36,356 nt of DNA from an uncultured Lachnospiraceae bacterium (lineage in GTDB: Bacteria; Bacillota; Clostridia; Lachnospirales; Lachnospiraceae): assembly GCA_946538525.1 (NCBI GenBank), contig CAMNGU010000011.1, forward strand, positions 1 through 36,356, given 5' to 3'. Within the stretch, counting starts at the first letter, position 1, and every line of letters begins with the position of its first letter. Below, piece after piece: positions 8,831-28,643 of this stretch. The notes under the pieces are model-generated. The model ran no database searches. It saw only the letters and a program-made list of their open reading frames with translations, and was not told the DNA's origin. The translations under genes were made by a program, and so were the position numbers.

Positions 8831-8872
8831 ATATGAAGAAATAAAATATGAAGAAATAAAATATGAATAAAT
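8831..8872 (+). repeat. 15-nt tandem repeat carrying in-frame ATG-AAG-AAA-TAA units at a start site
   Basis: ATATGAAGAAATAAA occurs at 8831-8845 and 8846-8860, with a partial third copy ATATGAATAAAT at 8861-8872. The third copy supplies the ATG (8863) of the next gene. Each full unit reads ATG AAG AAA TAA in the same frame, so two minimal upstream frames precede the real start. Confidence 0.85.
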
Positions 8873-11800
8873 ATCGTATGAAAAAACTTCATAAAGTAAT
8901 CCTGCAGTTGATGCTTATTTCTGCTTATCCTGCAGTATTTCATGCTGTGGCTTTTCTGGGAAATGGCAATATGTATAAGCCTGATAGTATGGCTGAAATG
9001 AAATTCCCAATAGCTACTTTTTTGGTGTTTGCAATCTTACTTGTAGCTACTTTTGTTACATTTATAATGGCAAAGTTGGCAGAAAAGAGAGCGAAAATCA
9101 TAGAGGACAGTGAAAATTTACAAAGCGGAAAACTAACGGCGAATTTAGCTCATACCACAAGTAAGCTGATAGCTGAAAACTCTGAAGAAAAGTTTCGTGA
9201 AGTTGTAAAAGCTCATGAGACACCTGATGAGAAGAAAAAGAGGAGAAGAAAGGCTATTAGAAGAAAGGTTCCGATTATTTTACTTTTAGTAATAAGTGTT
9301 GCTTTAAGGCTCCCGATGATTGGAACATTTCAAAGATGGGATGCAGGAGAATACTTCTACACCATAGGAACTTCAGTGCAGGATTATACATTTACCCTGT
9401 CGGACTTTCTGTATAATTTCTCAGTTGCTTATCATCTGAATTACGGATTTACAAGTTTCATCGCAATACCGCTATTTATAAATGCGAGAAGCGTTGAGGC
9501 TGTTACCATATGGCAGATCGTATTTTCAATCCTGGCGATACTTGCGTTATATCAGATTTTTAGAACTGATTTTGGATTTAGACGGTCAAAGTCTGCAGTA
9601 GGCGCATTGATGGTTGGAAATGTACCAATATTCCTGGGACTTTCAGCGTATTGTACACCAGACTATTATGTGGTTTTGTTCTTTATATTTGCGCTTTATT
9701 TTGAGGCGAAGAAACTTCATATATTAGAAGCTTTCATGATCCTTATGATGTGCTTTACGAAGGAAAATTCGGCGCTTATTGTATTTGGCTACTATGGAGT
9801 GAAGATTCTTTACAGATTCATAATAGCTGGAAAGCTTGTTGGACAGAGAAAAGCAATTTTAAATAATATTTCTAAAGCAAAGAGTAGTAAAGAATCTGCT
9901 ACGGATTTAAAAGAAGATTATAGCGATGATTATAGTGAAGATTATAACGAAGATTATAGCGAAGAATCAGAAGATGATTATGGAGAATCAGAGAATGATT
10001 CTAAAAAATCAAAACTGAGAGTAACATTTATTGAAAGACTTAAAATTGTAGTATGTTCTAAAGATTTCTGGGTTGCACTTACTACAGGAGCTGTATTTGT
10101 TGCTGCTATGGGTGTAATGGGCTCTAGTTGGGCTGATAAGCTTAATTCTACAACTATTGCACCAGATGGTATTGCGCCTACAGGATTAACCCTTGAAAAA
10201 CCTTATGTTTATTTCAAGTTGAAGCAGTTTTTTGGTTCGAATTATGCATGGCTCATATCTCTATATTTTCTTCATGCATTTAAAAATATAGTGGTTGAAA
10301 GACTATGGAAGAATCTTAGACATAAAGGCTGGATGACATTTTGTGGACTGATGGGCTCGATGTTCTTCTTCCTGGTTTTTGGTCTTGTATATCATATAGC
10401 TGCAATTGAAAGATATAACATTTTCTTTGCGATTGCTTTAGCCTTTATTTGTGCCATAATTCTTGGAACGGATCTAAATAGTAAATGGTCCTATGCGATT
10501 CTTGGTGGAATTCTAGCAATTCTTCTAGGTGTCGAGAGTTTTATAACCATAGATCCAATGACAAAGTGGCTGTTTGAACAGGTTTCCATTGGAAATGGAA
10601 GAACAATGAATTTTGAAAGTGAATTTACTGAATACTTTGGTGATGGTCTAGTTACAAATTATCAATATGCTTGGATAGACAAATCATTTGATAAATTCCT
10701 TGATGATATTGATTACAATACTGACAAAGCAATCTACTTCCCGGATGAGGAAAGTGGAATGAAGTCAGGAGTCCAGTTTGAAGGAAATGGCGGATATTTC
10801 CGAATTGGATGGTTCCCGGAAAAGAGGAAGCGCGGTTATTATGATTACAATATGTCGGATTGGGAAGAACTGTATATCTGCAGAATTTTCTCTGATAATA
10901 CATGGTTCCCTTATGTCTATGTTCCTTACACAAGAAATGTGACTACAGAATATATGAAGGATCAGTCTTATGTTTGTTTTATTCCTTACTATAAGGAATT
11001 GGGAGTGAACGAAGAGTACTATAAAAATGTTCTAAGCGAATACTATTATTTAGGCAGCGAGGAACAGTCGGAAGCTTATCGTGGAGCTATAAGTTATTAT
11101 CCTATGCTAAAAAAGGATTTGTATTCAGGTGGACTTAGCATGGATATGGTAATTGATGAGCTTAGGGCTAGTCAGAATGAGAGTAACCCGGATGCTCAAA
11201 GACAAAAAAATGTTACCAAGACTGAGATAAGCGAAGCTGCCGAGAGGCTTGCCATGTTAAAAAAGTCTGAATATCTGGTTGTTGCTGAAATGAATGAGGT
11301 TGACAGAACAAAAATTCAGGCGATGGATAGTATCATTCTCTCTGTTCAAATGTTTGATTCAGATGGTAAGAAGATTAAATTAGAGCATGAAGATGAAGAC
11401 ATGGTAGTAAGTGTTGGTACAGGGACTTTAGTAGATGAAGTAGATAAAGCTCTTCAGTCAATGGAATGTGGCGAAGTAGCAGATGTGGAGTTCAAGGTTC
11501 CAGAAGGATATCCAGAACTGGAAGAATATGCAGGAAAATCTGTAATTGCAAAGATTAGTCCACAGGAAATTGTTTGTAGTCTTGAATACAGTATTGAGCA
11601 GGAAGATATTGAAGCTATAGAAGCGTATGCCCGCGATGAGGCAAATGAGTATTTTGACAGATTGAAAGCAAAACAGTGGGTTCGTGGATATATATATCGA
11701 AATGGTACAGAAAATCTGACTAGTATGGTTTCTGAAGAAGAAATAGAAGAGGTAAGAGTGTACTATTACGAATATCTTGAAGGAGTCAATAAGACTAGAG

Positions 11801-11892
11801 ATGAATTTGAGGCCTGGATTGGTGCTACTCCAGAGGAATATGAGCAGGCATTGGCAGTAATAGCGGCCTATGCGAAATGGAGTGGAAAGTAA
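8863..11892 (+). CDS. Polytopic GT-C-like membrane glycosyltransferase with C-terminal trigger-factor-type PPIase domain
   Basis: A 1009-residue membrane protein. Hydrophobic helices start near residues 10, 47 and 133, the last after a KKKRRRKAIRRK basic patch, with more up to about 560. QRWDAGEYF after the third helix suits the catalytic Asp loop of GT-C enzymes, and MCFTKENSALIVF is typical of GT39-like proteins. Residues 347-384 form an acidic tandem region (EDYSDDYSEDYNEDYS). About 450 residues after the last helix should be extracytoplasmic. Within them, about 812-902 (MDSIILSVQMFDSDGKKI...VGTGTLVDEVDKALQSMECGE...VPEGYPELEEYAGK) read as an FKBP/trigger-factor PPIase, followed by a helical tail. 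Expected role: transfer of a lipid-linked sugar outside the cell. The ribosome site is weak (GAAGAAA, inside a repeat). Confidence 0.75.
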   Translation: MNKYRMKKLHKVILQLMLISAYPAVFHAVAFLGNGNMYKPDSMAEMKFPIATFLVFAILLVATFVTFIMAKLAEKRAKIIEDSENLQSGKLTANLAHTTSKLIAENSEEKFREVVKAHETPDEKKKRRRKAIRRKVPIILLLVISVALRLPMIGTFQRWDAGEYFYTIGTSVQDYTFTLSDFLYNFSVAYHLNYGFTSFIAIPLFINARSVEAVTIWQIVFSILAILALYQIFRTDFGFRRSKSAVGALMVGNVPIFLGLSAYCTPDYYVVLFFIFALYFEAKKLHILEAFMILMMCFTKENSALIVFGYYGVKILYRFIIAGKLVGQRKAILNNISKAKSSKESATDLKEDYSDDYSEDYNEDYSEESEDDYGESENDSKKSKLRVTFIERLKIVVCSKDFWVALTTGAVFVAAMGVMGSSWADKLNSTTIAPDGIAPTGLTLEKPYVYFKLKQFFGSNYAWLISLYFLHAFKNIVVERLWKNLRHKGWMTFCGLMGSMFFFLVFGLVYHIAAIERYNIFFAIALAFICAIILGTDLNSKWSYAILGGILAILLGVESFITIDPMTKWLFEQVSIGNGRTMNFESEFTEYFGDGLVTNYQYAWIDKSFDKFLDDIDYNTDKAIYFPDEESGMKSGVQFEGNGGYFRIGWFPEKRKRGYYDYNMSDWEELYICRIFSDNTWFPYVYVPYTRNVTTEYMKDQSYVCFIPYYKELGVNEEYYKNVLSEYYYLGSEEQSEAYRGAISYYPMLKKDLYSGGLSMDMVIDELRASQNESNPDAQRQKNVTKTEISEAAERLAMLKKSEYLVVAEMNEVDRTKIQAMDSIILSVQMFDSDGKKIKLEHEDEDMVVSVGTGTLVDEVDKALQSMECGEVADVEFKVPEGYPELEEYAGKSVIAKISPQEIVCSLEYSIEQEDIEAIEAYARDEANEYFDRLKAKQWVRGYIYRNGTENLTSMVSEEEIEEVRVYYYEYLEGVNKTRDEFEAWIGATPEEYEQALAVIAAYAKWSGK
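9910..9995 (+). repeat. 12-nt coding repeat encoding acidic EDYS/EDYN units
   Basis: Within the 1009-residue gene, GAAGATTATAGC-type 12-mers repeat about four times and then degrade, encoding EDYSDDYSEDYNEDYSEES. The period is a multiple of three, so copy number can change without breaking the frame. The tract falls in a loop between hydrophobic helices. Confidence 0.75.
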
Positions 11893-12017: not shown

Positions 12018-14321
12018 ATGAGCACAGAACAGAAGGACTTAAAAAAGAATGTGGCAGCAGAAGAAAAAATAGTAGAAGAAAATGCGAAAAAAGCAGCTTC
12101 AACTGTGGCTTCAAAACTAGCGAAGATTTCAGCGGCTAAAGATGATGGAGAGCTGGAAAGTACAGTTTCTAAAGCAGAAGAGAAAGAAAAAAGTACAGCA
12201 TCAACAGCATCATCCTCAAAAGAATCTTCAAGAACAGCCACATCTGGTAGTTCAAGCGGTTTCATAGCTTGGGCAAAGTCAAATAAAGGGAAGATGATAC
12301 TTGGCGTTATAGCTTTATTTATTATCTATGTACTCTATCAGCTGAAATATGTTTATGAAGTTTGGTTCGATCCAGACGAGCTGGATATTTATACTGTTGC
12401 ATTTGAGATGGTAAAGGGTAAGGTGCTATATAGAGATATAGCTTCTCAGCATATGCCATTTACATATATTTACAGTACCATCTTCTATTGGCTGGGTGCA
12501 CATGAAGTTTGGCTTCAGAGAATATATTATTACATTCTGTTTGCTTTCTTCTGGACTATGTTTGTTATTAGATATAATAAGTATGTGAATAAATGGGCGC
12601 TTGTGCTTCATCCATTTCTATTCTATACATATATGCAGCTTCAGGATTTTTCTACACAGATTCTTTCGGAAAATATAGTAGCAATCGGTGCAGAAATATT
12701 TGTTCTGGAGTTCATTCGTTTCCTTAAAGAAAAAGATATTGATACAAAGGGCTGCATCCTTATGGCTGTAGCGGTAATGTTCACCTTTGGTACCACATTC
12801 ATAGCAATATTCCCACTGTTCTTTGTTGGATTGGGAGTACTTCTACTAGAGATTAAGTGGCGCATCGAAAGAGGGCAGTCTCGTAAGGACTGGTGGCAGA
12901 TGATGCTAAAGAGATATGGAAAGCTTTTCGGAATCACCTTGATTCCATGGCTAGGGTTCCTTATCTACGGAGCTGCTACACATTCTTTAGGCGACTTCTA
13001 TGTAGATGCTTATCTTATCAACAGACTTTACTATCCTAAGTACAATGATGGCGTTGGCGGAAGTGTTGGAGGTACATTCCTGACTCCGTTTATGAGCCTT
13101 GCAAATGAATTCTTCGGCATAAATATGTCTGCGATAGAACCAACATTTGTTCTTAGATGGATAGGTATAATCGCCGGAGGACTTTACTTCCCATATAAGC
13201 TGGCAAGAAAGTATGGATGGATTGCCGGATTTACTATGTTTGTATATACATTCTCTTATGGAACAAGAGGGTATTTCAATTATCACGGCAAGGGATTCGT
13301 GGCAGTTATAAGTATGATGACCATGATCACACTTGTTCAGTATGCATATAACAGTAAAGAAAGCTTTGATAATGGCGGCCTTGCAAGAAAGGCTTTCCTT
13401 GCTACAGCAGTAATGCTTATATTTGCAAATAATGCTTATAACATGAATAACATGTTCACAGTTCTTGTGAATTCAGAATATAACCACTATCAGTATGATA
13501 CAGATTATCTTACAAAGATTACTGATGAGGATGAGAGAATCTGGATGACTAATATGTGCGATGCTATTCCTTGGGCTGCTAAGAGAGTAACAACAGGTTC
13601 TCCAGTAAGTTGTCCATGGATGTGGGAAGGTGTAGGAGCTCCAATGTTTGAAGAGTTTTCCAAGAACCCACCTAGAGTTATTATGTTCCAGCTGGGATAT
13701 GAATCTTGGGGACACAAGATGGCAGACTATGCGCCGGATGCATATTATTTCATAGTAAATAACTACAGATATCTTCCAGATTCAGGACAGCTCTGGGTGC
13801 TTAATTCATACTATGATGAGGCATGCCGCAAGGTAGGAATTGATCCGGAAACTTATCCAAATGATAATGGCCTTGGGGTAACCCCATACACAGTTGATCC
13901 TTCAGAAATACCAGGAATGACAGCAGAAGATAGAGCAAGATATAGAGAAGCATTGGCAAATGGTGGTGCACCGGCTGAAGTGAAAACAGAGGAACCTACA
14001 ACAGAGGAAGTTACCACAGAGGAGCAAACTACTGAGGCAACAACAGAGGCAACAACCGAAGAAATCAATGTAGATGATGACGCGGAAGATAGCGATGCAC
14101 TTATCGTAACACCTGATTCAAATGATAATAATGATATTATTGATGATACAACAGGACCTGGTTCTACTTCATCAGGAAATGGACCTGGAGATGTAAATGT
14201 AAGCCCTGCAGATGAAAGAGGCGGAAGTAACAGTGATGTAAATGGTGATACACCTGGTGCAGTACAGGCTCCAGATGGCAGCTGGGTAATACCAGACGAT
14301 AGTGATGGACCAGGAATGTAA
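12018..14321 (+). CDS. Second polytopic GT-C/GT39-like glycosyltransferase with low-complexity termini
   Basis: The product is 767 residues. Residues 1-90 are a cytoplasmic Lys/Glu/Ala/Ser-rich segment. The first helix (about 93-115) is followed by YEVWFDPDELDIYTVAFEM, where PDELD fits the acidic catalytic loop of GT39/GT83-type enzymes that use polyprenyl-phosphate sugars. QHMPFTYIY and LQRIYYY continue the family pattern. About ten helices follow. From about residue 654 the tail is an extracytoplasmic Thr/Glu region (TTEEVTTEEQTTEATTEATT) and then an Asp/Gly/Pro-rich end finishing SDGPGM, like a wall-spanning or spacer segment. AAGGAAGG precedes ATG 12018. It probably acts with the GtrB-like enzyme upstream; its substrate is unknown. 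Confidence 0.78.
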   Translation: MSTEQKDLKKNVAAEEKIVEENAKKAASTVASKLAKISAAKDDGELESTVSKAEEKEKSTASTASSSKESSRTATSGSSSGFIAWAKSNKGKMILGVIALFIIYVLYQLKYVYEVWFDPDELDIYTVAFEMVKGKVLYRDIASQHMPFTYIYSTIFYWLGAHEVWLQRIYYYILFAFFWTMFVIRYNKYVNKWALVLHPFLFYTYMQLQDFSTQILSENIVAIGAEIFVLEFIRFLKEKDIDTKGCILMAVAVMFTFGTTFIAIFPLFFVGLGVLLLEIKWRIERGQSRKDWWQMMLKRYGKLFGITLIPWLGFLIYGAATHSLGDFYVDAYLINRLYYPKYNDGVGGSVGGTFLTPFMSLANEFFGINMSAIEPTFVLRWIGIIAGGLYFPYKLARKYGWIAGFTMFVYTFSYGTRGYFNYHGKGFVAVISMMTMITLVQYAYNSKESFDNGGLARKAFLATAVMLIFANNAYNMNNMFTVLVNSEYNHYQYDTDYLTKITDEDERIWMTNMCDAIPWAAKRVTTGSPVSCPWMWEGVGAPMFEEFSKNPPRVIMFQLGYESWGHKMADYAPDAYYFIVNNYRYLPDSGQLWVLNSYYDEACRKVGIDPETYPNDNGLGVTPYTVDPSEIPGMTAEDRARYREALANGGAPAEVKTEEPTTEEVTTEEQTTEATTEATTEEINVDDDAEDSDALIVTPDSNDNNDIIDDTTGPGSTSSGNGPGDVNVSPADERGGSNSDVNGDTPGAVQAPDGSWVIPDDSDGPGM

Positions 14322-14453: not shown

Positions 14454-15041
14454 ATGGGAAAAATTACAGTAGAAGATTGCGTAGTAGACGGACTTACAAT
14501 TGAAGGCCTTAAGGTTATTACACCAACAGTATTTGGTGATGACAGAGGCTACTTTGTTGAAACATATAACTTAAATGATATGAAAGAAGCTGGAATGGAC
14601 TATACATTTGTTCAGGACAACCAGAGCGCATCTAAAAAGGGTGTTTTAAGAGGACTTCATTTCCAGAAGGAATTCCCACAGGATAAGCTTGTAAGAGTAG
14701 TTAACGGCGAAGTATTTGATGTGGCTGTTGATCTTAGACCAGGTAGCAAAACATTTGGAAAATGGTACGGAGTACTTCTTTCAGCTGAAAATAAGAAGCA
14801 GTTTATGATTCCAAAGAATTTTGCACATGGCTTTATTGTTCTTTCAGATTATGCCGAGTTCTGTTATAAGTGTACAGATTTCTATCATCCAAATGATGAG
14901 GGGGGACTTCTCTGGAAGGACCCTGAGATTGGGGTAGAATGGCCAATGCCAGAGAGAATGACTGAAGCTGATCTTACTCTTTCTGATAAGGATCAGAAGT
15001 GGAGTGGAATTGCTGAATATAAAAAAGAAAGAGGACTTTAA
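14454..15041 (+). CDS. rfbC: dTDP-4-dehydrorhamnose 3,5-epimerase
   Basis: RfbC/RmlC epimerises C3 and C5 of dTDP-4-keto-6-deoxyglucose on the way to dTDP-L-rhamnose. The 195-residue product has normal length and the hallmark cupin motifs: FGDDRGYFVETYN, QDNQSASKKGVLRGLHFQ (catalytic His region), GEVFDVAVDLRPGSKTFGKW, and FAHGFIVLSDYAEFCYKCTDFYHP. AAGGAG precedes ATG 14454. No rmlA, rmlB or rmlD is present in the window, so dTDP-4-keto-6-deoxyglucose must come from genes elsewhere. Its position between the GT-C genes and the ABC exporter suggests that rhamnose, or a related 6-deoxy-L-sugar, is part of the exported chain. Confidence 0.95.
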   Translation: MGKITVEDCVVDGLTIEGLKVITPTVFGDDRGYFVETYNLNDMKEAGMDYTFVQDNQSASKKGVLRGLHFQKEFPQDKLVRVVNGEVFDVAVDLRPGSKTFGKWYGVLLSAENKKQFMIPKNFAHGFIVLSDYAEFCYKCTDFYHPNDEGGLLWKDPEIGVEWPMPERMTEADLTLSDKDQKWSGIAEYKKERGL

Positions 15042-15089: not shown

Positions 15090-16553
15090 ATGAACAAGAA
15101 AAAACTACTACGAATTCTGTTCGTAGTAATAATAATCATTCTTAATTTAATAATTTTTTGGAAGATAGATTTTTCCGATATTGACACCAAGGGTGTTTCA
15201 TTTGTGATGGAGATGGCTTCGAATAAAGATGATGAATATCAGATTTATTACACTAAGGTGGGCGAGGATTTTAGCGAAGCAGCCAGCAAGAAGGTGTTTT
15301 ACGATGGCTTTGCAAATGGAACAGATGTAACAACCATAGAAAATGATACTGAAAGCATTACTGTAGGAAAAAAACAAACCCTAAGATTTGATTATCCAAT
15401 AGAATATGATAATCTTCGTCTTGATTTTGGCCAGTATGCAGGAAATACAGTTATTTATGATATGTATTTTGAGATGTCTGGAGTAAAATATCAGATACCT
15501 ATGGAGCAGATTCAAAATGAGAAGAATGCTCCAAGCATTCTGTCTAGAATATTGATGGAAAAGGAAGGACAACAGTGTCTGGTAGTAAATGCAGAAGCTG
15601 GAGATCCAAACATGCTTATTCAGTTCCATAAGGATCAGCTTTTGGAACAGTATAGAGAAGCAAATAGACAGAATACGCTTATTTTAGATATTGCAATATG
15701 TGTTGTTATGGATTTTATTGCAATCTATGTACTTCTGCACTTTTATTCTTTGATTGATATTCCAGTACAGATTTATCAGAATAGAAAGCTGGCTTTAACA
15801 CTTGCTAAAAATGATTTCAAGACAAAATATGCAGGTTCATATCTTGGTATGATATGGGCATTTATACAGCCGGTGGTTACCATTTTGGTTTATTGGTTCG
15901 TCTTTTCAGTAGGTTTAAAGGCTGGTAATGAGGGAGACTACCCATATGTTCTTTTCATTGTGGTAGGTATTATTCCTTGGTTCTTCTTCTCGGATTCACT
16001 TAATGGAGGAACCAATGCAATGACAGACTATAACTATCTGGTTAAAAAGGTGGTATTCAATATTGATATCCTTCCATTTGTGAAGGTATTATCAGCATTT
16101 TTCGTGCATTGTTTCTTTATTGCATTTGCACTGATCCTCTGTACTTGTATGGGACATCATCCAACCATCTATACGGTTCAGCTTATATACTACATATTCT
16201 GTAACTTCGTGTTTGTACTGGGGCTTTCATATCTTAGCTCTGCAATAGTAGTATTCTTCCGAGATTTAGGGCAGTTTATAAATATATTTATCCTGCAGGT
16301 GGGTGTATGGCTTACACCTATTATGTGGAATGCAAATAAGATGCTTAGTCCAACTGCGCTTAAGTTATTTAAGATAAATCCAATGTTCTATATTGTCAGT
16401 GGATTCAGGGACAGCGTTCTGGATAAGAACTGGTTCTGGACAGGAGACAGACTCCTTTGGACCATTTATTTCTGGATTATCACAATATTGGTATTTGGAC
16501 TGGGAGTAAAAATATTTAGAAGATTGAAGATACATTTTGCAGATGTATTGTAA
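15090..16553 (+). CDS. ABC-2 polysaccharide export permease (Wzm-like) with an added N-terminal extracytoplasmic domain
   Basis: The permease of a glycan ABC exporter, paired with the Wzt ATPase downstream. The C-terminal part (about 225-487) is a complete Wzm/TagG unit: an amphipathic QIYQNRKLALTLAKNDFKTKYAGSYLGMIW stretch, then about six helices including VGIIPWFFFSD and VFFRDLGQFINIFILQVGVWLTPIMW. Normal Wzm proteins are about 260 residues; this one has 487. The surplus is a TM helix (7-24), about 170 residues predicted outside the membrane with strand-like repeats (LRLDFGQYAGNTVIYDMYFE), and a second helix (195-222). I do not know a named family for that domain. The ribosome site is weak (GAGAGAAAA). 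Permease identity is secure; the role of the extra domain is open. Confidence 0.9.
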   Translation: MNKKKLLRILFVVIIIILNLIIFWKIDFSDIDTKGVSFVMEMASNKDDEYQIYYTKVGEDFSEAASKKVFYDGFANGTDVTTIENDTESITVGKKQTLRFDYPIEYDNLRLDFGQYAGNTVIYDMYFEMSGVKYQIPMEQIQNEKNAPSILSRILMEKEGQQCLVVNAEAGDPNMLIQFHKDQLLEQYREANRQNTLILDIAICVVMDFIAIYVLLHFYSLIDIPVQIYQNRKLALTLAKNDFKTKYAGSYLGMIWAFIQPVVTILVYWFVFSVGLKAGNEGDYPYVLFIVVGIIPWFFFSDSLNGGTNAMTDYNYLVKKVVFNIDILPFVKVLSAFFVHCFFIAFALILCTCMGHHPTIYTVQLIYYIFCNFVFVLGLSYLSSAIVVFFRDLGQFINIFILQVGVWLTPIMWNANKMLSPTALKLFKINPMFYIVSGFRDSVLDKNWFWTGDRLLWTIYFWIITILVFGLGVKIFRRLKIHFADVL

Positions 16554-16592: not shown

Positions 16593-16602
16593 GGTGAAAA
16601 TC

Positions 16603-17955
16603 ATGTCAGAAGATATAGCAATTAGAATAAATGATGTTTCAAAACTGTATAAGCTTTACGATAAGCCTACTGACCGGTTGAAGGAGTCTTTGGGACTTAC
16701 CAAGGCCAAGAAGTATAAGGAGCATTTCGCTCTTCGCAATGTGAGTTTTGATGTGAAGAGAGGTGAATGCGTAGGAATAATTGGAACTAATGGTGCTGGA
16801 AAGTCTACTATCCTGAAAATCATAACTGGAGTTCTAAATCCTACTGCCGGAGAGGTTACTATAAATGGCCGTATCTCTGCTCTTCTAGAGTTAGGAGCCG
16901 GCTTCAATATGGAATATACAGGTATAGAAAATGTTTATCTAAATGGTTCCATGATTGGATTTAGTCGTGAGGAAATTGATGCAAAATTACAGGATATACT
17001 TGATTTTGCTGATATAGGTGATTTTGTAAATCAGCCTGTAAAGACTTACTCATCAGGTATGTTTGTAAGACTTGCCTTTGCGGTGGCAATCAATATTGAA
17101 CCAGAAATACTTATAGTTGATGAAGCACTTTCAGTAGGTGATGTTTTCTTCCAGCTGAAATGCTTTAAAAAGTTTGAGGAATTTAAGCAGCAGGGAAAAA
17201 CTATTCTCTTTGTAAGTCATGATCTTTCAAGTATAGAGAAGTATTGTGACAAGGCAATTCTTCTGGATCATGGTAGAAATGTTGGAGAAGGAACTCCAAT
17301 TGATATCATAAATAAATATAAGAAGATAATGACAGGAATGACTGTCGAAGAAGTTGAAGAGCAGGAAAAGAGGAAAGCTGAGCTTAGAGATTTAGTAGCT
17401 GAGGACTCAGAAAATTCTGAAAATAAAGAGGAATTAGAAGAGGCTAAAACCAGTACTTTTTCACTTACACCAGAGGTTCCTTGGAAAGAAAGCTTTGATC
17501 TAAATCCAAATCTTGATGAATATGGAGATATGGGTGCCAAGATTATTGATATCGGTGTGTTTGATGAAGATGAAAATCTTACAACCACAATAATAAAGGG
17601 CGGTAAATTTACATTAAGATCAAAGATAGAATTTAAAACAGATATAGAAGATCCTATTTTTACATACACCTTTAAGACACTTAAAGGCCAGGATATTACA
17701 GGTACAAATACCATGTATGAAAAAGCAGGAGTAGGAATTGCCCATGCAGGGGATATATTTGTGGCAAGTTTTACACAGGAGATGAACCTGCAGGGAGGAG
17801 AATATCTGCTCTCTATGAGTTGTACAAGTTTTGTAAATGGCGATCTTGTAGCTCATGACAGACTCTATGATGTATTAAATATCACGGTTGTGTCGGACAA
17901 GAATACTGTGGGATTCTATGATATGAATTCCAAGGTTAAAATTGATAAATTATAG
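16603..17955 (+). CDS. Polysaccharide ABC transporter ATPase with C-terminal glycan-binding domain (Wzt-like)
   Basis: The 450-residue product powers the adjacent permease. Walker A is GTNGAGKST (61-69), the signature is YSSGMFVRLAFAVA, Walker B ILIVDEALSVGD and the switch His LFVSHDL. The N-terminal YKLYDKPTDRLKESLG is typical of glycan exporters. After a charged linker (about 245-280) a beta-rich C-terminal domain follows (about 290-450: DMGAKIIDIGVFDEDENL...GDIFVASFTQEMNLQGGEYLLSMS). In Wzt of polymannan systems this domain reads the modified chain end before export. Its presence predicts a terminal modification, and a methyltransferase and kinase-like gene follow directly. I start at ATG 16603, since AGGTGA overlaps the track's GTG at 16594. 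Confidence 0.94.
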   Translation: MSEDIAIRINDVSKLYKLYDKPTDRLKESLGLTKAKKYKEHFALRNVSFDVKRGECVGIIGTNGAGKSTILKIITGVLNPTAGEVTINGRISALLELGAGFNMEYTGIENVYLNGSMIGFSREEIDAKLQDILDFADIGDFVNQPVKTYSSGMFVRLAFAVAINIEPEILIVDEALSVGDVFFQLKCFKKFEEFKQQGKTILFVSHDLSSIEKYCDKAILLDHGRNVGEGTPIDIINKYKKIMTGMTVEEVEEQEKRKAELRDLVAEDSENSENKEELEEAKTSTFSLTPEVPWKESFDLNPNLDEYGDMGAKIIDIGVFDEDENLTTTIIKGGKFTLRSKIEFKTDIEDPIFTYTFKTLKGQDITGTNTMYEKAGVGIAHAGDIFVASFTQEMNLQGGEYLLSMSCTSFVNGDLVAHDRLYDVLNITVVSDKNTVGFYDMNSKVKIDKL

Positions 17956-18021: not shown

Positions 18022-18765
18022 ATGGATATTTACGACGAGCTTTTAAATATAGTAAAAACTGAATCGGATTTAGAAGAGTTTCTTACCCATGAGAATAAAT
18101 GGGAATATCTCTATAATTTTTCAAATATCAGGAAGAATATTCTCGAATGGTATGATTTTAAATCTGATGCAAAGCTTTTGGAGTTTGGAGCAGAATGTGG
18201 TGCACTCACAGGGCTTTTCTGCGAAAGAGTGAAGGAAGTTGTTTCTGTTGAAGATGATGAGAGAAAACGACTGGTAAATAAAGCAAGAAATGAAAAATAT
18301 AGTAATTTAAAGATTGTATCTAACGAAGAATTGTCAGAGAAATCTTTTGATTATATTACTATAATTGGTAATTTTTCGATTGAAACTTTGAAAAAGGCTA
18401 AAAAGTTATTAAAGCCAAAGGGACGACTTATTATAGCAATCGAAAATAAATATGGAATGAAGTACTGGTCAGGAGAAGAGAGACCTGATACTTATTCCAG
18501 AATGCAATTAATTGGAATAATAAGGCGTGAGGGATTGCTGGAAGATGAGGTTTATTATCCTATTCCAGACTATGTATTACCTACGGAGATATATTCATCA
18601 AATAATCTGCCTAAAGTGGGAAGTATTTCTGCAAACTCTCCAGCATATGAAAAAGAAAAGATTACTGCATTTGACGAACCTTCAGCCTTTGATATGGTGA
18701 TAAAAGACAGAAGATTTGAAGAGTTTGCGAATTCATTTTTAATCTTTGCTAAGAGTAATAGCTAA
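18022..18765 (+). CDS. SAM-dependent class I methyltransferase of the glycan locus
   Basis: The product is 247 residues. LLEFGAECGALTGLF is the SAM-binding motif I (acidic end of strand 1 plus a glycine loop), VVSVEDDERKR motif II, and FDYITIIGNFS the motif IV region. LLKPKGRLIIAIENKYGMKYWSG is a pattern I associate with methyltransferases of clostridial surface-glycan loci. YYPIPDYVLPTEIYSS is the usual end of that family. The central part is shorter than in relatives I recall. It sits between the Wzt ATPase and the kinase/coiled-coil/GT protein, so it most likely methylates the glycan, perhaps at the end read by the Wzt C-terminal domain. AAAGGA is 5 nt from ATG. The acceptor is unknown. 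Confidence 0.8.
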   Translation: MDIYDELLNIVKTESDLEEFLTHENKWEYLYNFSNIRKNILEWYDFKSDAKLLEFGAECGALTGLFCERVKEVVSVEDDERKRLVNKARNEKYSNLKIVSNEELSEKSFDYITIIGNFSIETLKKAKKLLKPKGRLIIAIENKYGMKYWSGEERPDTYSRMQLIGIIRREGLLEDEVYYPIPDYVLPTEIYSSNNLPKVGSISANSPAYEKEKITAFDEPSAFDMVIKDRRFEEFANSFLIFAKSNS

Positions 18766-18815
18766 AATAATTAATTGTTTAGATATATATTATTGAAAAT
18801 AATTGGAGCATATAA

Positions 18816-21800
18816 ATGTCAGAGCTGTTGTATATAAAATATAATTCTCATAGAAAGCCAGAATATCAGGTATCTACACGAATAGTGTCAAAAAATGGCG
18901 TTAAGCGTGTAGTTAAGTGTCCATCGACACAAAAGGCTGAGATGCAAATCGATACAATAAAAAAGAATTATAAATTACTTAAGGATTATTATAACTCAAT
19001 AAAGGTAATACCATTTAGAAAGGCTGGAAATGGTGTTTCTTTTGATTTTGTTGAAGGTACATCAATAATCGAGGGAATTAATTTTGAGAAAGATAGCCTT
19101 GATAGTATTTATAAGAGGCTTCTTCATACAATGGATGAAGTACTGGATATTAAAGAGGAATATATCTGTGATTTCGAAGAAACAAAAGAGTTTAGTGAGA
19201 TTTTTCCGGATATGCATCCTACAGGAAAGGCATATAAAATCTGTAATCTGGATAGTATTTTCAGTAATTTCATAAGGACGAAAGATGGAATAATATGTAT
19301 AGACTATGAATGGGTTTTAAATTTCCCTGTTCCTATCAATTTTATTCGCTTTAGAATGATGCAAAATATCTACAATGAGCATATTGGATATCTTTTAGAC
19401 AAAGTGGATATTAAAGACTTTATAGGATGTCTGGAATTATCTGATGATGAGATGGATTTATATTTTGATATGGAGAGAGCTTTCCAGGAATTTGTTCATG
19501 GAGAGAATTTGAAATACAGCTATTTGGAAAATTATAAGAAAAGCTGGGGCAGATTAGATAATTTCATCGAGGAATTTAAGGAAAAAGAAAATCATGTTAA
19601 GAATCTGGAAGGAATTATTCAGAATAAGGATGAATTAATAAATAATAAAGATGAAGTAATCAAGGCGCGTGAAGAAATAATTCAAAATAAGGATGCAGTT
19701 ATTGAGTCAAAAGAAAACCAGATTAAAGAAAGAGAAATTAGTATTCAGAATTTGAATGATCAGGTTTCTGCAAAAGATAATCATATTGAGAATCTTAATT
19801 CTATAATAGAAAAAAAGCAGGAAGAGCTAGAGAATTTACTAGAAGCAAAGGCTCAATTACAAGAAGCAAAGGATCAGCAGGCAAGGGATTATGACAGTTT
19901 GCTTCAATATGAAATGTTAAGAAGAGATAATGATATTATATATAGAGATGGTCTTCTGCAGATAAAAGATGCTCAGATAGCTCATTTGACAAAAATGACT
20001 AGAAATCCGTTATATTGGGGCTATTGTCTGGGCCGAAAGGTATGTAGAAAAGCATACCGTATTATTGAGCCTAGGGGGTTAAAAGAGAAAAAAGCAGAAA
20101 TAGAGAAGAATGGAAAATATAAGTATAAATATAAAGATTTAATGGATCTGGATAATACAGATTATGCTGACTGGATTGAAAGAGTTGAGAAGAATTATCC
20201 AAAGGAAAAACGCTTAAAATACCAGCCAAAGATATCCGTGTTGGTTCCTGTTTACAATGTGTTGGATAAACATTTGATTCCTTGTATTGAGTCAGTCATC
20301 AACCAGACATATGATAACTGGGAACTATGTCTCGCAGATGACAAATCAACATGGGATAATGTTAGGGAGACTTTGGAAAAATATGAAGATCACCCTAAGA
20401 TTAAGATTGTTTATAGAAAAGAAAATGGACATATATCGGAGGCAACAAATTCTGCTCTATCAGTGGCATCAGGCGACTTTGTTGGACTTTTGGATTGTGA
20501 TGATATTCTTTCTCCAAATGCTTTATATGAAGTTGCTCTAAAGTTAAATGAGAATAGAGAGCTGGATTTTATTTATAGTGATGAGGATAAGGTGGATGAG
20601 GAAGGGAATAATCGCCATATGCCTCATTTTAAACCGGATTGGTCTCCAGATACTTTGATGTCCAATATGTATACATGTCATTTTACAGTGTATAGAAAGA
20701 GCTTAGTGGAAAAAGTTGGTGGTCTTAGAACAGAATGTAACGGTTCACAGGATTATGACTTGGCTCTTCGAATTATGGATGAGACTACTCCAGATAAAAT
20801 CTCACATATAGCTAAAATACTTTACCATTGGAGAGAGAGAGAAGAGTCTACCTCTGGAAATGCAACTGTTAAGCCATATGTTTTTGAAGCAGCTAAGAAG
20901 GCAAAACTGGATTCTCTTGAAAGAAGAGGAATTAAGGGTGAAGCTGTATATGTCGATGAAATGTATCAGTACAATGTTGTTTATACAGTTCAAAATAGTC
21001 CTAAGGTTAGTATAGTCATTCCTTCAAAGGATAATTATAAGGTACTCAGTAGATGTATAGAAACATTGCATAAATATACAGAGTATAAAAATTTTGAAGT
21101 CATTCTCGTTGATAATGGAAGTAATGATGAAAATAGAAAGAAATATGATAATCTATGTAAAAAACATAACATGAAATATTTCTATGAGAAAATGGACTTC
21201 AATTTCTCTAAAATGTGCAATATTGGTGTAAAAAATGCTACTGGAGAATATGTTCTTCTGCTTAATGATGATATTGAAATACTTGAAGAATCAGGAAATT
21301 GGCTTGGTGTAATGCTGGGACAGGCGCAGATATCATATACTGGAGCGGTAGGAGCAAAGCTTTTATATCCTGAAGAAAGAAAGATTCAGCACGTTGGTGT
21401 CATCAATATTGAGAATGGACCAGTTCATGCTTTTACAGGAATGTCAGATGATATTGTTTACTATTTCGGAAGAAATAGGCTGCATTATAATGTCCTAGCA
21501 GTTACTGCTGCTTGTCTTATGATCAGTAAAGAAAAATACTGGAAAGTTGGCGGATTTGATGAAAGCTTTGCAGTTGCCTATAACGATGTAGATTTTTGCT
21601 TCAAGCTTTCAGAGGCAGGATACTTTAATGTAGTAAGAAATGATATAACACTTATTCATCATGAATCTGTCAGCCGAGGGAATGATTTAGTTGATATAAA
21701 CAAGACTAGAAGATTGATGGATGAAGAGAATAGATTATATGGTATTCATAGTTCATATGCACATTATGATCCATTTTATAATTCTAATTTGACTCAGTTA

Positions 21801-22208
21801 AGACATGATTTTGAAAATAATGTTTGTGATTATAAGTTAAAAATATCGAAAGTAAAGAAATATAACAAACAATTATCATTATCTGAAGATGAAAATTTGG
21901 TATTCTCAATAGATGCTATAAATGTTGAGAGATATGTTTATATTGAAGGTTGGGCTTTTTATAAAGGTCGAGAGAATAATAACGACAATAAGGTTAGCGT
22001 TATATTGACTGGAGATTATTCGTATTGTATTGATACATATAAAGTCTATAGAAAAGATGTGGCTGAATATAATGATAAGGAAAAAGATATTGAGTTTGTA
22101 GGCTTTAGATGTAGATTTGATAGAAGACAGATTGAAGACGGTGAGTATGAAATCGTATTAAGAATTAACAGGGATTGTTACGATAGTGAGAAGAAACTAT
22201 TGAAATAG
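18816..22208 (+). CDS. Kinase-like fold, coiled coil and two GT2 domains in one 1130-residue protein
   Basis: Residues 1 to about 245 look like an aminoglycoside-phosphotransferase/protein-kinase fold: RVVKCP (Lys34), SFDFVEGTSI as the hinge, NLDSIFSN (Asp146, Asn151; the HxDxxxxN loop with His replaced by Asn) and CIDYEWV (Asp163). Residues about 252-395 are a coiled coil of clear heptads (NKDELIN, NKDEVIK, AREEIIQ, NKDAVIE, SKENQIK). The first GT2 (about 470-700) has ISVLVPVYN and LLDCDD; the second (about 730-960) has VSIVIPSKDN and LLLNDD. A beta-rich tail (about 1020-1130) begins with YIEGWAFY. There is no membrane helix. Known relatives by logic are WbdD (methyltransferase-kinase-coiled-coil terminator) and WsaE (methyltransferase plus two rhamnosyltransferases). 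A capping or chain-length role is inference; kinase activity is unproven. Confidence 0.78.
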   Translation: MSELLYIKYNSHRKPEYQVSTRIVSKNGVKRVVKCPSTQKAEMQIDTIKKNYKLLKDYYNSIKVIPFRKAGNGVSFDFVEGTSIIEGINFEKDSLDSIYKRLLHTMDEVLDIKEEYICDFEETKEFSEIFPDMHPTGKAYKICNLDSIFSNFIRTKDGIICIDYEWVLNFPVPINFIRFRMMQNIYNEHIGYLLDKVDIKDFIGCLELSDDEMDLYFDMERAFQEFVHGENLKYSYLENYKKSWGRLDNFIEEFKEKENHVKNLEGIIQNKDELINNKDEVIKAREEIIQNKDAVIESKENQIKEREISIQNLNDQVSAKDNHIENLNSIIEKKQEELENLLEAKAQLQEAKDQQARDYDSLLQYEMLRRDNDIIYRDGLLQIKDAQIAHLTKMTRNPLYWGYCLGRKVCRKAYRIIEPRGLKEKKAEIEKNGKYKYKYKDLMDLDNTDYADWIERVEKNYPKEKRLKYQPKISVLVPVYNVLDKHLIPCIESVINQTYDNWELCLADDKSTWDNVRETLEKYEDHPKIKIVYRKENGHISEATNSALSVASGDFVGLLDCDDILSPNALYEVALKLNENRELDFIYSDEDKVDEEGNNRHMPHFKPDWSPDTLMSNMYTCHFTVYRKSLVEKVGGLRTECNGSQDYDLALRIMDETTPDKISHIAKILYHWREREESTSGNATVKPYVFEAAKKAKLDSLERRGIKGEAVYVDEMYQYNVVYTVQNSPKVSIVIPSKDNYKVLSRCIETLHKYTEYKNFEVILVDNGSNDENRKKYDNLCKKHNMKYFYEKMDFNFSKMCNIGVKNATGEYVLLLNDDIEILEESGNWLGVMLGQAQISYTGAVGAKLLYPEERKIQHVGVINIENGPVHAFTGMSDDIVYYFGRNRLHYNVLAVTAACLMISKEKYWKVGGFDESFAVAYNDVDFCFKLSEAGYFNVVRNDITLIHHESVSRGNDLVDINKTRRLMDEENRLYGIHSSYAHYDPFYNSNLTQLRHDFENNVCDYKLKISKVKKYNKQLSLSEDENLVFSIDAINVERYVYIEGWAFYKGRENNNDNKVSVILTGDYSYCIDTYKVYRKDVAEYNDKEKDIEFVGFRCRFDRRQIEDGEYEIVLRINRDCYDSEKKLLK

Positions 22209-25554: not shown

Positions 25555-26520
25555 ATGGCAATTTCAAATAAAACAGTATCTATAATATTACTTTCCTATA
25601 GAAATCTTGAAGGGATATATGAGACTTTAGATAGCATTTTTATTCAGGATTATCCAGAAATAGAGGTGGTTCTCTCCGATGATGGAACACCAGAGTTTAA
25701 TCAGGAAGAACAGCGCTTAAGAGAATATATAGAGAAGAATAAAAAGAATAATACTAAAAATGTAATATTCAATCATCTGGAAGTAAACCAGGGGACTGTT
25801 AAAAATATAAATAGTGGTATCAAAAAATCTTCCGGAGGATATGTTAAGCTGATTTCTTCAGAGGATGTGTTAGCTGATCCTTCATCCCTAGCTAATTATG
25901 TGGCATATATGGATGAGAAGGATGCATATATTGTTTTTGGTAAGATGAGGGGAGTGACCAAGGAAGGCATTTATAAGGATGAGCTTCTTGCCTGTGAATC
26001 AGATTATGATCTGCTAAAGTCCTATAATCTGAAACAGCAGAGAGACAGACTTTTTGCCAGAAACTTCCTTCCGGCACCAGCTGCATTTTTCAGAAGAGAT
26101 GTGTTTGATAAGTGCGGAATGTTTGATGAGGATATCCGACTAATCGAGGATTATCCATATTGGATAAATCTTACCAAGCATCGTGTAAAGTTTGAATATC
26201 TGGATAAGGTTACTGTGTTATACAGGTTATCCGGAGTATCCAGCGCAGGCTCATATAGTGAAATGTTTATGGAAGATATGTTTGTAATATATGATAAGTA
26301 TATCTTCCCATATGACAAGAGATTTAAAGCTTTTCAGAAGCCATATAATGCATTAAAAAGAGATGGACTTACTTTCTATATGGAGAAAGCAAGGCTTAAA
26401 AAATATAAGGGGCTTAGAAAAACTTGGGTATATATTAGATATTCACCATACTTTGTCTATACAAAGCTTTTAGATTTAAAGGTGGATGCTAAGAATAAGA
26501 AAAGTAAGAGGAATAGTTGA
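25555..26520 (+). CDS. GT2-family glycosyltransferase
   Basis: The product is 321 residues and soluble. VSIILLSYRNLEGIYETLDSIFIQDYPEIEVVLSDDGT is a standard GT-A start with the nucleotide-binding SDDG. The usual D-x-D is represented by LISSEDVLADP. FDKCGMFDEDIRLIEDYPYW matches the acceptor-side E-D-x-x-x-W catalytic region of inverting GT2 enzymes, and TVLYRLSGVSSAG follows. Donor and acceptor are unknown; being directly upstream of the amino-sugar genes, it may use their product. The stop overlaps the next ATG (TGATG), so the two are translationally coupled. The Shine-Dalgarno for its own start is weak. Confidence 0.88.
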   Translation: MAISNKTVSIILLSYRNLEGIYETLDSIFIQDYPEIEVVLSDDGTPEFNQEEQRLREYIEKNKKNNTKNVIFNHLEVNQGTVKNINSGIKKSSGGYVKLISSEDVLADPSSLANYVAYMDEKDAYIVFGKMRGVTKEGIYKDELLACESDYDLLKSYNLKQQRDRLFARNFLPAPAAFFRRDVFDKCGMFDEDIRLIEDYPYWINLTKHRVKFEYLDKVTVLYRLSGVSSAGSYSEMFMEDMFVIYDKYIFPYDKRFKAFQKPYNALKRDGLTFYMEKARLKKYKGLRKTWVYIRYSPYFVYTKLLDLKVDAKNKKSKRNS

Positions 26521-26927
26521 TGGAAATAAATACTATAGATTTTGAAGAACATGGTGATGACAGAGGTACTCTTGTAGCTGTTGAACAGTTGAAGAATCTA
26601 CCTTTTGAGATAAAAAGATGTTACTACATGTATGATACCAAGCCTGGAGTAAGGAGAGGATTTCATGCCCATAAAGCCTTAAAACAGGTTTTACTTTGTG
26701 TTCATGGTAGTTGCAAGATTCTTTTGGATGACGGAACTGAAAAAGCAGAGGTTCTACTCGATAAGCCTAATCATGGGCTTGTTATCGAGTCAAATATATG
26801 GAGAGAAATGTTTGATTTTAGCGAAGATGCAGTGCTGATGGTTCTTGCATCTGAACTATATGATGAAGCTGATTATATTAGAAATTATGATGATTTTATT
26901 AAATATGTAAATGAAAAGGAGAATTAA
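26520..26927 (+). CDS. dTDP-4-keto-6-deoxyhexose 3,4-ketoisomerase (FdtA/QdtA type)
   Basis: This 135-residue small cupin moves the keto group of dTDP-4-keto-6-deoxyglucose from C4 to C3. [23 protein letters not shown] and the family motif [14 protein letters not shown] with its active-site histidines are clear, followed by [13 protein letters not shown]. The length equals that of FdtA/QdtA/WxcM-type isomerases. Whether it yields the galacto or gluco isomer (Fuc3N or Qui3N route) cannot be told by eye. I start at ATG 26520, eight nucleotides after AAGAGG; the track's TTG at 26517 is less likely. The aminotransferase follows after five nucleotides. Confidence 0.9.
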
Positions 26928-26932
26928 GTATA

Positions 26933-28021
26933 ATGAATATTCAATATACTGATTTTGCAAAAATGCATGATCCAATTAGAGAAAAACTGGATGCCGCTTA
27001 TAAAGAGGTTATGGATTCAGAGTGGTTCATCGGTGGAAAACAGGATGAAGCATTTGAAAAAGAATTTGCCCAGTGGTGTGGTTCGAAATATTGTATAGGC
27101 GTTGGTAATGGACTTGACGCACTTAGACTAATCCTTCAGGCTTATAATATAGGTGAAGGTGACGAGGTTCTTGTTCCATCAAATACTTTTATAGCAACTG
27201 TGCTTGCTATATCATATGTTGGGGCGAGACCTGTTTTTGTTGAACCGGATATTGATACATTTCTTATTACTCCAGAGGAAACTGCAAAGAAGATCACTCC
27301 GAAAACTAAAGCCATTATGGTGGTTCATCTTTATGGCCGACTTGCAGATATGGAGGGATTTGTAAGCTTAGCAGAGAAGAACAATCTTCTCCTGTTTGAA
27401 GATACAGCTCAGGCTCATGGTGCAATGCATAATGGTAAAAAAGCTGGAACCTTTGGAAAGGCAGGTGCTTTTTCATTTTATCCAGGAAAAAATATTGGTG
27501 CCCTGGGAGATGCTGGTGCTGTAGTTACAGATGATAAGGAATTAGCTGATAAGATAAGAGCCTTAGGTAATTATGGTTCTACAAGAAAATATAAGCATGA
27601 TTATATAGGGGTTAATTCAAGACTTGATGAATTCCAGGCTGCATTCCTAAGAGTAAAGCTTCCTGTTCTAGATGAGTGGACAAAGGAACGACAGAGAATA
27701 GCTGATATATATTATGACAAGATTCATAATGATAAAATAGTTCTTCCAAAGTATACAAAGGAAAATGTGTATCATATATTCCCTGTACTTTGTGAAACAA
27801 GAGATGAATTACAGAAATATTTAGAAGATGAAGGAATTCATACTTTAATCCACTATCCAATTGCGATCCATTTACAGGAATCCTATGCTGATCTGGGATA
27901 TGGAAGAGGAGATTTTCCTTTAGCGGAAAAGATAGCAGATCAGGAACTTAGTATTCCACTATATCCTGGAATGAGTAGTGAAGAGATAGAATATGTTATT
28001 AAAGCATTAAATGAGTTTTAA
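26933..28021 (+). CDS. dTDP-3-keto-6-deoxyhexose aminotransferase (FdtB/QdtB type, DegT family)
   Basis: A 362-residue PLP enzyme of the DegT/DnrJ/EryC1/StrS family. [41 protein letters not shown] (cofactor Asp) and [17 protein letters not shown] (Lys186, the Schiff-base lysine) are all present, as is [12 protein letters not shown]. It aminates the 3-keto sugar made by the ketoisomerase directly upstream. AAGGAG precedes ATG 26933. With the GNAT gene that follows, it defines a route to a 3-acetamido-3,6-dideoxyhexose (Fuc3NAc or Qui3NAc). Confidence 0.93.
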
Positions 28022-28082
28022 ACATATTTCGTAATTAGATGTTGCTTCAGGTATTGAAATAGATACAGATAAATAATGATAG

Positions 28083-28107
28083 ATAAATAGGACAAATAAA
28101 TAGGATA
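28083..28107 (+). repeat. 13-nt tandem repeat containing the ribosome-binding site
   Basis: ATAAATAGGACA (28083-28094) recurs 13 nt later as ATAAATAGGATA (28096-28107); only the second AGGA is at a useful distance (7 nt) from ATG 28113. The upstream part of the same 91-nt spacer carries related GATAAATAATGATA sequence. Confidence 0.7.
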
Positions 28108-28112
28108 AAAAA

Positions 28113-28643
28113 ATGATAAGAAATCTTAGAATGGAAGATGCTCCTGCAATGTTTGAATGGATGCATGACGAGAATGTAGTCCGTAATCTTCAGGCAGATT
28201 TTATGAGTTTTGGAATGGATAAGGTTAATGCGTTTATCCAGGCAAATTTTGAACCTGATATGGATGGCGATAATGTTAATTATGCCATTTGTAATGAAGA
28301 AGATAATTATGTAGGAACTATCAGTTTAAAGAATATAGATAGAAAGAATAAAAATGCAGAATATGCAATAGTTACTGGAAGCAAGGCACATGGGAAGGGT
28401 TACGCTAAACTTGCAACCATGGATATTCTAAAGGTGGCATTTGAAGAACTGAAGCTGGAAAGAGTTTATCTTTATGTTTCAGTAAATAATATTCCAGCAA
28501 ATAAATTTTATCAGAAGATGCATTTTGTTGAGGAAGGGGTTTTTAGAAAACATCTAATGATAGATGGAGAATTAAGAGATATTAGGTGGTATAGCATATT
28601 ACATGAAGATTATCTTCGTATGAAAGAAGAAAATGAAAGATGA
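28113..28643 (+). CDS. GNAT acetyltransferase (RimJ/RimL-like), probable amino-sugar N-acetyltransferase
   Basis: A 176-residue GNAT protein. IRNLRMEDAPAMFEWMHDENVV is the usual N-terminus, NAEYAIVTGSKAHGKGYAKLATMDIL contains the acetyl-CoA loop (Q/R-x-x-G-x-G/A in the form KAHGKGYA), and LYVSVNNIPANKFYQKMHFVEEGVFRKH completes the fold. After an FdtA/FdtB pair the expected enzyme is FdtC/QdtC, a left-handed beta-helix acetyltransferase. Here a GNAT occupies that place, so a replacement of that step is likely. An unrelated acetylation target is possible. Confidence 0.82.
   Translation: MIRNLRMEDAPAMFEWMHDENVVRNLQADFMSFGMDKVNAFIQANFEPDMDGDNVNYAICNEEDNYVGTISLKNIDRKNKNAEYAIVTGSKAHGKGYAKLATMDILKVAFEELKLERVYLYVSVNNIPANKFYQKMHFVEEGVFRKHLMIDGELRDIRWYSILHEDYLRMKEENER

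What the first reader, a model, noticed from the sequence alone, without database searches (positions are those of the whole stretch)
15090..15760. ABC glycan permease carrying an extra extracytoplasmic domain
About 220 residues (TM helix, roughly 170 outside residues, TM helix) precede a full-length Wzm permease. Standard Wzm/TagG proteins lack this. The domain is beta-rich by eye and could bind the emerging glycan, couple export to wall attachment, or receive the GT-C enzymes.
Basis: partly seen in the sequence, partly recalled or inferred. Interest (0 to 1): 0.65.

Follow-up and report, generated by a model that had tools for sequence, protein, structure and literature searches.

The report
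Glycan export permease with external beta-sandwich
The membrane half of a bacterial surface-sugar exporter carries an extra folded domain on the outside of the cell, related to a domain that chain-capping enzymes from the same kind of gene cluster carry on the inside, so the two may grip the same sugar chain from both sides of the membrane.

Summary
ORF 15090-16553 (487 aa) reads TM helix, about 167 extracytoplasmic residues, TM helix, amphipathic helix, then a complete Wzm/TarG-type permease. AlphaFold2 gives the extra part as a confident beta-sandwich (pLDDT 93). The fusion is real but not unique. It recurs in about 17% (25 of 150) of the listed Wzm matches in sampled Lachnospiraceae, and in Paenibacillus, Bacillus and Clostridium. 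It is gained and lost freely: near-identical permeases, one in a syntenic operon, keep the TM hairpin but lack the domain. It evolves far faster than the permease (window vs L068: 46% against 92% identity). Wzt_C ATPases follow fused and unfused permeases alike. No Pfam, NCBIfam or PDB family covers it. However, it is homologous (hhalign 98.3%; 20 shuffled controls at most 0.6%) to a module in cytosolic methyltransferase-kinase-coiled-coil chain terminators near most of these transporters, and in GT2, GT4 and GT-C enzymes. In Klebsiella O7 ORF6 a domain in the same position was called a carbohydrate-binding module (CBM) from its predicted fold (PMC11231755). Best reading: an optional CBM-like module holding the polymer as it emerges from the channel. 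Glycan binding is inferred, not shown. Docking of GT-C enzymes is not supported.

The parts
15090..16553 (+). fused Wzm-type ABC permease, 487 aa
15096..15164 (+). TM helix 1 (residues 3-25), preceded by lysines, N-in
   Evidence: AF2/DSSP; positive-inside rule (inference)
15171..15665 (+). extracytoplasmic beta-sandwich domain (residues 28-192), CBM-like module
   Evidence: AF2 pLDDT 93; HMM match residues 32-194; conserved in 72 permeases
15414..15431 (+). motif LRLDFG (residues 109-114; R110 and D112 nearly invariant)
   Evidence: alignments A1/A2
15600..15611 (+). motif GDPN (residues 171-174; D172 nearly invariant), shared with the cytosolic modules as DPQ/DPY
15666..15737 (+). TM helix 2 (residues 193-216)
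15741..15782 (+). helix 218-231, likely the interface helix that precedes Wzm/TarG TMDs
   Evidence: TarGH description PMC7078476
15786..16550 (+). Wzm/TarG permease core
   Evidence: Pfam ABC2_membrane residues 236-442; TarG 6jbh E 2e-38
16594..17955 (+). Wzt ATPase with C-terminal Wzt_C cap-binding domain (residues 308-444)
   Evidence: Pfam ABC_tran 8.5e-25, Wzt_C 6.9e-39
18022..18765 (+). methyltransferase, probable part of the chain terminator
   Evidence: weak methyltransferase-type Pfam hits, RrnaAD 1.1e-5 just above its cut-off; synteny
18816..22208 (+). probable kinase-like domain, coiled coil and two GT2 domains; lacks the beta module that relatives carry between kinase and coiled coil
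   Evidence: Pfam Glycos_transf_2 5.5e-48 with 2 stretches; no module hit; kinase and coiled coil read from sequence and synteny (inference; no PDB match)
14454..15041 (+). RmlC, dTDP-4-dehydrorhamnose 3,5-epimerase, immediately upstream

Best explanation
An ABC-transporter-dependent (Wzm/Wzt_C, capped-chain) surface-polysaccharide exporter whose permease has gained an optional glycan-recognition module. The module is a beta-sandwich of about 145-165 residues held outside the membrane as the loop of an N-terminal TM hairpin that leads into the interface helix of the Wzm fold. Two copies per Wzm dimer would flank the channel exit. Most likely they bind the backbone of the polymer as it emerges, preventing back-sliding or presenting the chain to extracytoplasmic modifying or attaching enzymes, while Wzt_C checks the cap on the inside. 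Shown here: the fold prediction, topology by sequence, modular gain and loss, rapid divergence, and homology to the module of the cytosolic methyltransferase-kinase-coiled-coil terminators. Inferred: glycan binding, dimer geometry and the ratchet or hand-over role.
For: Confident beta-sandwich between two TM helices. Profile-profile homology to the module in glycan chain terminators and glycosyltransferases: 98.3% probability over 105 columns including the DP motif, against at most 0.6% in 20 column-shuffled controls and 0.8% for Wzt_C. Hits to GT-C, GT2, GT4 and MT-kinase proteins at the same loci. In Klebsiella O7 ORF6, a proven MT-kinase terminator, an immunoglobulin-like domain read as a CBM sits at the same position between kinase and coiled coil (PMC11231755). 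Precedent: an extracytoplasmic CBM on the GT-C enzyme GT136 binds the exported backbone yet is dispensable (PMC11127046). Fast, mosaic divergence (21% mean identity against 61% for the core; dN 4-9 times the core in the relatives with core identity of 84% or more, 3 times in the others) and a weak partial correlation with Wzt_C distance (r 0.19) would fit recognition of varying glycans.
Against: No Pfam or NCBIfam CBM family matches above cut-off; only 2 of 53 members touch F5_F8_type_C, at best 1.5e-4. Foldseek finds no solved structure below E 0.001; the CBM60 hit 2xhh is E 0.11, prob 0.82, TM 0.37/0.47. No ligand is known and binding was not tested. The module's frequent loss shows export does not need it. 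The window's own terminator lacks the module. Homology of the Klebsiella domain by sequence was not tested.
Confidence: 0.5

Rival explanations
1. The domain is a docking or scaffold domain that recruits another extracytoplasmic protein (wall ligase, S-layer or polymerising partner) to the channel exit, without binding sugar itself.
For: Beta-sandwiches often mediate protein contacts; the TM hairpin without the domain is conserved in its own large clade, which suggests the N-terminal addition has a membrane-proximal role independent of the glycan.
Against: The same module occurs in cytosolic enzymes whose common factor is the glycan chain, not a membrane partner. GT-C partners do not track its presence.
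Confidence: 0.25
2. The domain is a variable, surface-exposed shield or decoy under diversifying pressure (phage or antibody contact), with little role in transport.
For: It is the fastest-evolving part of the protein and often lost.
Against: A framework of Y, R, D and DP residues is kept; it lies at the membrane under the wall; cytosolic homologues are also diverse and cannot be under such pressure. dS is saturated, so positive selection could not be tested.
Confidence: 0.1
3. The domain regulates the ATPase cycle by sensing chain occupancy at the exit through the TM hairpin and interface helix.
For: The hairpin joins directly to the interface helix, which transmits motion in TarGH (PMC7078476).
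Against: No direct data; unfused permeases with the same core work without it (inference from conservation).
Confidence: 0.1

Closest known systems
Wzm/TarG (TagG) type ABC-2 permeases, e.g. TarG 6jbh, Aquifex aeolicus Wzm
   Same: Complete permease core, interface helix, partner ATPase; the window's ATPase has the cap-binding Wzt_C domain of the O-antigen systems.
   Different: Solved members are 254-307 aa and lack the N-terminal TM hairpin and the external beta-sandwich.
Klebsiella pneumoniae O7 ORF6 terminator (methyltransferase-kinase-CBM-coiled coil-GT2-GT2)
   Same: Same order of domains as the terminators near these transporters; the domain between kinase and coiled coil is read as a CBM and corresponds in position to the module homologous to the permease domain.
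   Different: Cytosolic, part of a terminator; its CBM was only modelled; sequence homology to it could not be tested here.
GT136 GT-C enzyme ORF12 of Citrobacter youngae O1
   Same: Membrane protein of an ABC-dependent glycan pathway with an extracytoplasmic CBM that binds the exported backbone and is dispensable.
   Different: A glycosyltransferase, not an exporter; the CBM is C-terminal; no sequence relation tested.
Wzt_C carbohydrate-binding domain
   Same: Glycan-recognition domain attached to the same transporter.
   Different: On the ATPase, in the cytosol; no profile similarity to the permease domain (hhalign 0.8%).
CBM60/CBM36 (2xhh)
   Same: Best PDB fold match by probability and TM-score for the domain-only model.
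   Different: Not significant (E 0.11); no sequence match.

Membership tests
Wzm/TarG-type ABC-2 permease | ABC2_membrane domain covering a six-TM core | tested here: met
   PF01061 E 1.7e-13 residues 236-442; TarG E 2e-38
Wzm/TarG-type ABC-2 permease | encoded next to a Wzt-type ATPase in a glycan locus | tested here: met
   Wzt with Wzt_C at 16594-17955, RmlC upstream
Wzm/TarG-type ABC-2 permease | no large extracytoplasmic domain (true of all solved members, but not a formal criterion of the family) | tested here: not met
   about 167 residues outside between two added TM helices; solved members 254-307 aa. Hence 'variant', not plain member.
Capped-chain (polymerase-terminator) ABC-dependent pathway | Wzt with cap-binding C-terminal domain | tested here: met
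   Wzt_C E 6.9e-39
Capped-chain (polymerase-terminator) ABC-dependent pathway | terminator (methyltransferase and/or kinase) with coiled coil | tested here: inconclusive
   separate weak methyltransferase hit at 18022; kinase-like and coiled-coil stretches at 18816 read from sequence and synteny only; no PDB match
Carbohydrate-binding module | beta-sandwich fold | tested here: met
   AF2 pLDDT 93, all-beta
Carbohydrate-binding module | sequence or structure match to an established CBM family | tested here: not met
   no Pfam CBM above cut-off; Foldseek none at E <= 0.001
Carbohydrate-binding module | binds a carbohydrate | not testable with these tools
   needs pull-down or ITC
Module of the MT-kinase-coiled-coil terminators | profile homology including Y, LRxDxG-type and DP motifs | tested here: met
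   hhalign 98.3%, E 1.9e-14, controls at most 0.6%

The most novel reading that the evidence does not exclude
One glycan-recognition module family is deployed on both faces of the membrane in one export pathway: inside on the chain terminator and outside on the permease. Both would read the same backbone, so the external copy acts as a molecular pawl that makes export directional and hands the chain to external enzymes.
Probability: 0.3. Interest if true: 0.7.

Novelty: new variant of a known kind. Interest (0 to 1): 0.5.

Why it matters
How Wzm/Wzt transporters keep a long hydrophilic polymer moving outwards and pass it to external enzymes is unresolved. A permease sub-type with a natural external recognition domain, and near-identical sister permeases that lack it, gives a ready-made comparison. 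It also names an uncatalogued module (no Pfam family) that recurs in chain terminators, glycosyltransferases and exporters of Bacillota surface glycans.

Tried and rejected
Pfam, NCBIfam and PHROGs on the domain: only chance-level hits such as Vma12, DUF5412 and UmoA. PDB profile search: immunoglobulin chains at E 0.2 and above matched through a short YY motif, and CBM32 (2jd9) at E 0.89, all rejected as not significant. Foldseek against PDB with and without TM helices and against viral structures: nothing at E <= 0.001. DUF7654 of the neighbouring GT-C considered as the relative: rejected, because the domain HMM does not hit the window's own GT-Cs, and the hit in DUF7657-type protein L114 lies N-terminal to both DUFs. 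WsaF N-terminal domain considered: rejected, it is a Rossmann-like GT-B half. Specific pairing with Wzt_C rejected. GT-C docking rejected. Positive selection untestable because dS is saturated. Long branches make parts of the FastTree topology unsure, so only the starred-branch minimum (5 domain changes) is firm.

Full report
Observation. The ORF at 15090-16553 encodes 487 residues. The permease proper begins near residue 217-236: Pfam ABC2_membrane covers 236-442 and TarG of the TarGH structure aligns from 217 to the end. Residues 1-232 were folded with 53 homologues: pLDDT 92.9, TM1 3-25, an all-beta domain, TM2 193-216 and a further helix at 218-231. The domain folded alone gives the same confident beta-sandwich (pLDDT 93.0). 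A lysine-rich N-terminus before TM1 and the cytosolic start of the Wzm fold place the domain outside; this topology is inference from the positive-inside rule and from TarGH (PMC7078476).

How common it is. In 397 Lachnospiraceae genomes the Wzm core search lists 150 places. Their open frames fall into three groups: about 260-310 aa (plain Wzm), about 310-390 aa (extra TM hairpin, no domain) and 456-491 aa (domain present, 25 of 150 by my count of the table, sequences). A named scan of GTDB genomes brought about 60 full-length fusions, nearly all Lachnospiraceae or unnamed Clostridia, but also Paenibacillus apiarius, P. xylanilyticus, P. xylanexedens, Clostridium beijerinckii and a Bacillus. 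In an even sample of the phylum only one genome besides the window's has the full fusion. It is a recurrent but minority architecture.

Gain, loss and rate. A tree of 127 Wzm cores needs at least 15 changes of the domain state, 5 of them forced by well-supported branches (FastTree, some long branches). In the window's own well-supported clade, Lachnospiraceae NE2001 (L095) and AC2031 (L078) keep TM1 and TM2 but have only a short loop. NE2001's operon order is the same as the window's (GT-C, GT-C, RmlC, Wzm, Wzt, methyltransferase, kinase/GT2), and AC2031 differs by one extra membrane-protein gene between RmlC and Wzm. The domain is therefore dispensable for the transporter as such. It also diverges much faster than the core. 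Window against L068 is 46% in the domain and 92% in the core, against L071 29% and 87%; across 58 loci the means are 21% (domain), 61% (core), 51% (Wzt_C) and 78% (NBD). dN in the domain is 3-9 times that in the core (about 8-9 times against the two relatives with the most similar cores, L068 and L071) with saturated dS, so it remains constrained protein but no claim of positive selection can be made. The order of closeness differs between domain and core, which suggests mosaic exchange.

Neighbourhood. Where a complete Wzt lies downstream it has Wzt_C in 58 of 61 fused, 29 of 29 hairpin and 24 of 24 plain cases. Wzt_C belongs to the whole clade, not to the fusion. GT-C genes do not track the domain.

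What the domain is. Pfam, NCBIfam and PHROGs have no family for it. Foldseek finds no significant solved or viral structure; the best by probability and TM-score is the carbohydrate-binding module 2xhh (E 0.11). The lead that held came from an HMM of the permease domain run on the neighbouring ORFs. It hits GT-C enzymes, GT2 and GT4 enzymes and, most of all, large cytosolic proteins with a methyltransferase, a kinase-like region and a coiled coil. Iterating finds 90 such non-Wzm ORFs in the held loci; the set includes a few duplicate loci. Profile against profile, the permease domains and these modules match at 98.3% (E 1.9e-14) over 105 columns, including the final DP motif. Twenty column-shuffled controls reach at most 0.6% and the Wzt_C domain 0.8%. 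The collection of the second set had been seeded by the permease-domain HMM, so that step is not independent; the first-pass hits (E 1.6e-7 to 1e-5 on a small database) and the shared extra motif are the independent part.

Why glycan binding is the leading idea. The proven Klebsiella O7 terminator ORF6 has methyltransferase, kinase, an immunoglobulin-like domain 'indicative of a CBM', coiled coil and two GT2 modules (PMC11231755). The Lachnospiraceae terminators carry the module in that position. An extracytoplasmic CBM on the GT-C enzyme GT136 binds the unmodified exported backbone and is dispensable (PMC11127046). Wzt_C reads the cap on the inside (PMC9445017). A module that appears only in proteins handling the glycan chain, on both sides of the membrane, is most simply a chain-binding module. 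This step is inference.

Literature. Six full-text searches found no description of this fusion; subscription journals are mostly not held.

Verdict. Real, recurrent, uncatalogued; a new variant of the Wzm/Wzt exporter with an optional, fast-evolving, CBM-like external module. Interest 0.5.

Noticed in passing
8863-11892: A GT-C (PMT_2-like) membrane protein with a C-terminal FKBP/trigger-factor-type PPIase-like domain (NCBIfam tig 1e-7, PF00254 5.7e-5). The fusion is conserved in L078 and L095 (E 1e-31 and 1e-27). A prolyl isomerase joined to a glycosyltransferase is unusual.
   Followed up: partly
12018-14321: GT-C-like protein without Pfam match, with a Thr/Glu/Asp-rich tail ending in a conserved peptide TPGAxQAPDGSWVxPDDSxGPG that is also present in L002 and L095.
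   Followed up: partly
18022-22208: Methyltransferase plus kinase-like/coiled-coil/GT2-GT2 protein look like a split WbdD/ORF6-O7-type polymerase-terminator; relatives such as L068 (1902 aa) have it as one protein with the beta module.
   Followed up: partly
L104 9953-11382; L011: Fused Wzm split by a frameshift in the permease core (297 aa frame, then another frame) in two records of what seems one species; sequencing error or real.
   Followed up: no
33055-34136: Octopine dehydrogenase-type gene split into two overlapping frames (NAD-binding half and helical half), next to a transposase on the other strand (34570-36174).
   Followed up: no
L147 163-2271, minus strand: A GT-C-like membrane protein (703 aa) with two tandem copies of the beta module at its C-terminus; the DP motif lies between copies, suggesting repeat or circular-permutation variants of the module.
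   Followed up: no
26517-28643: FdtA, DegT aminotransferase and GNAT acetyltransferase together suggest a dTDP-3-acetamido-3,6-dideoxyhexose in the glycan.
   Followed up: no
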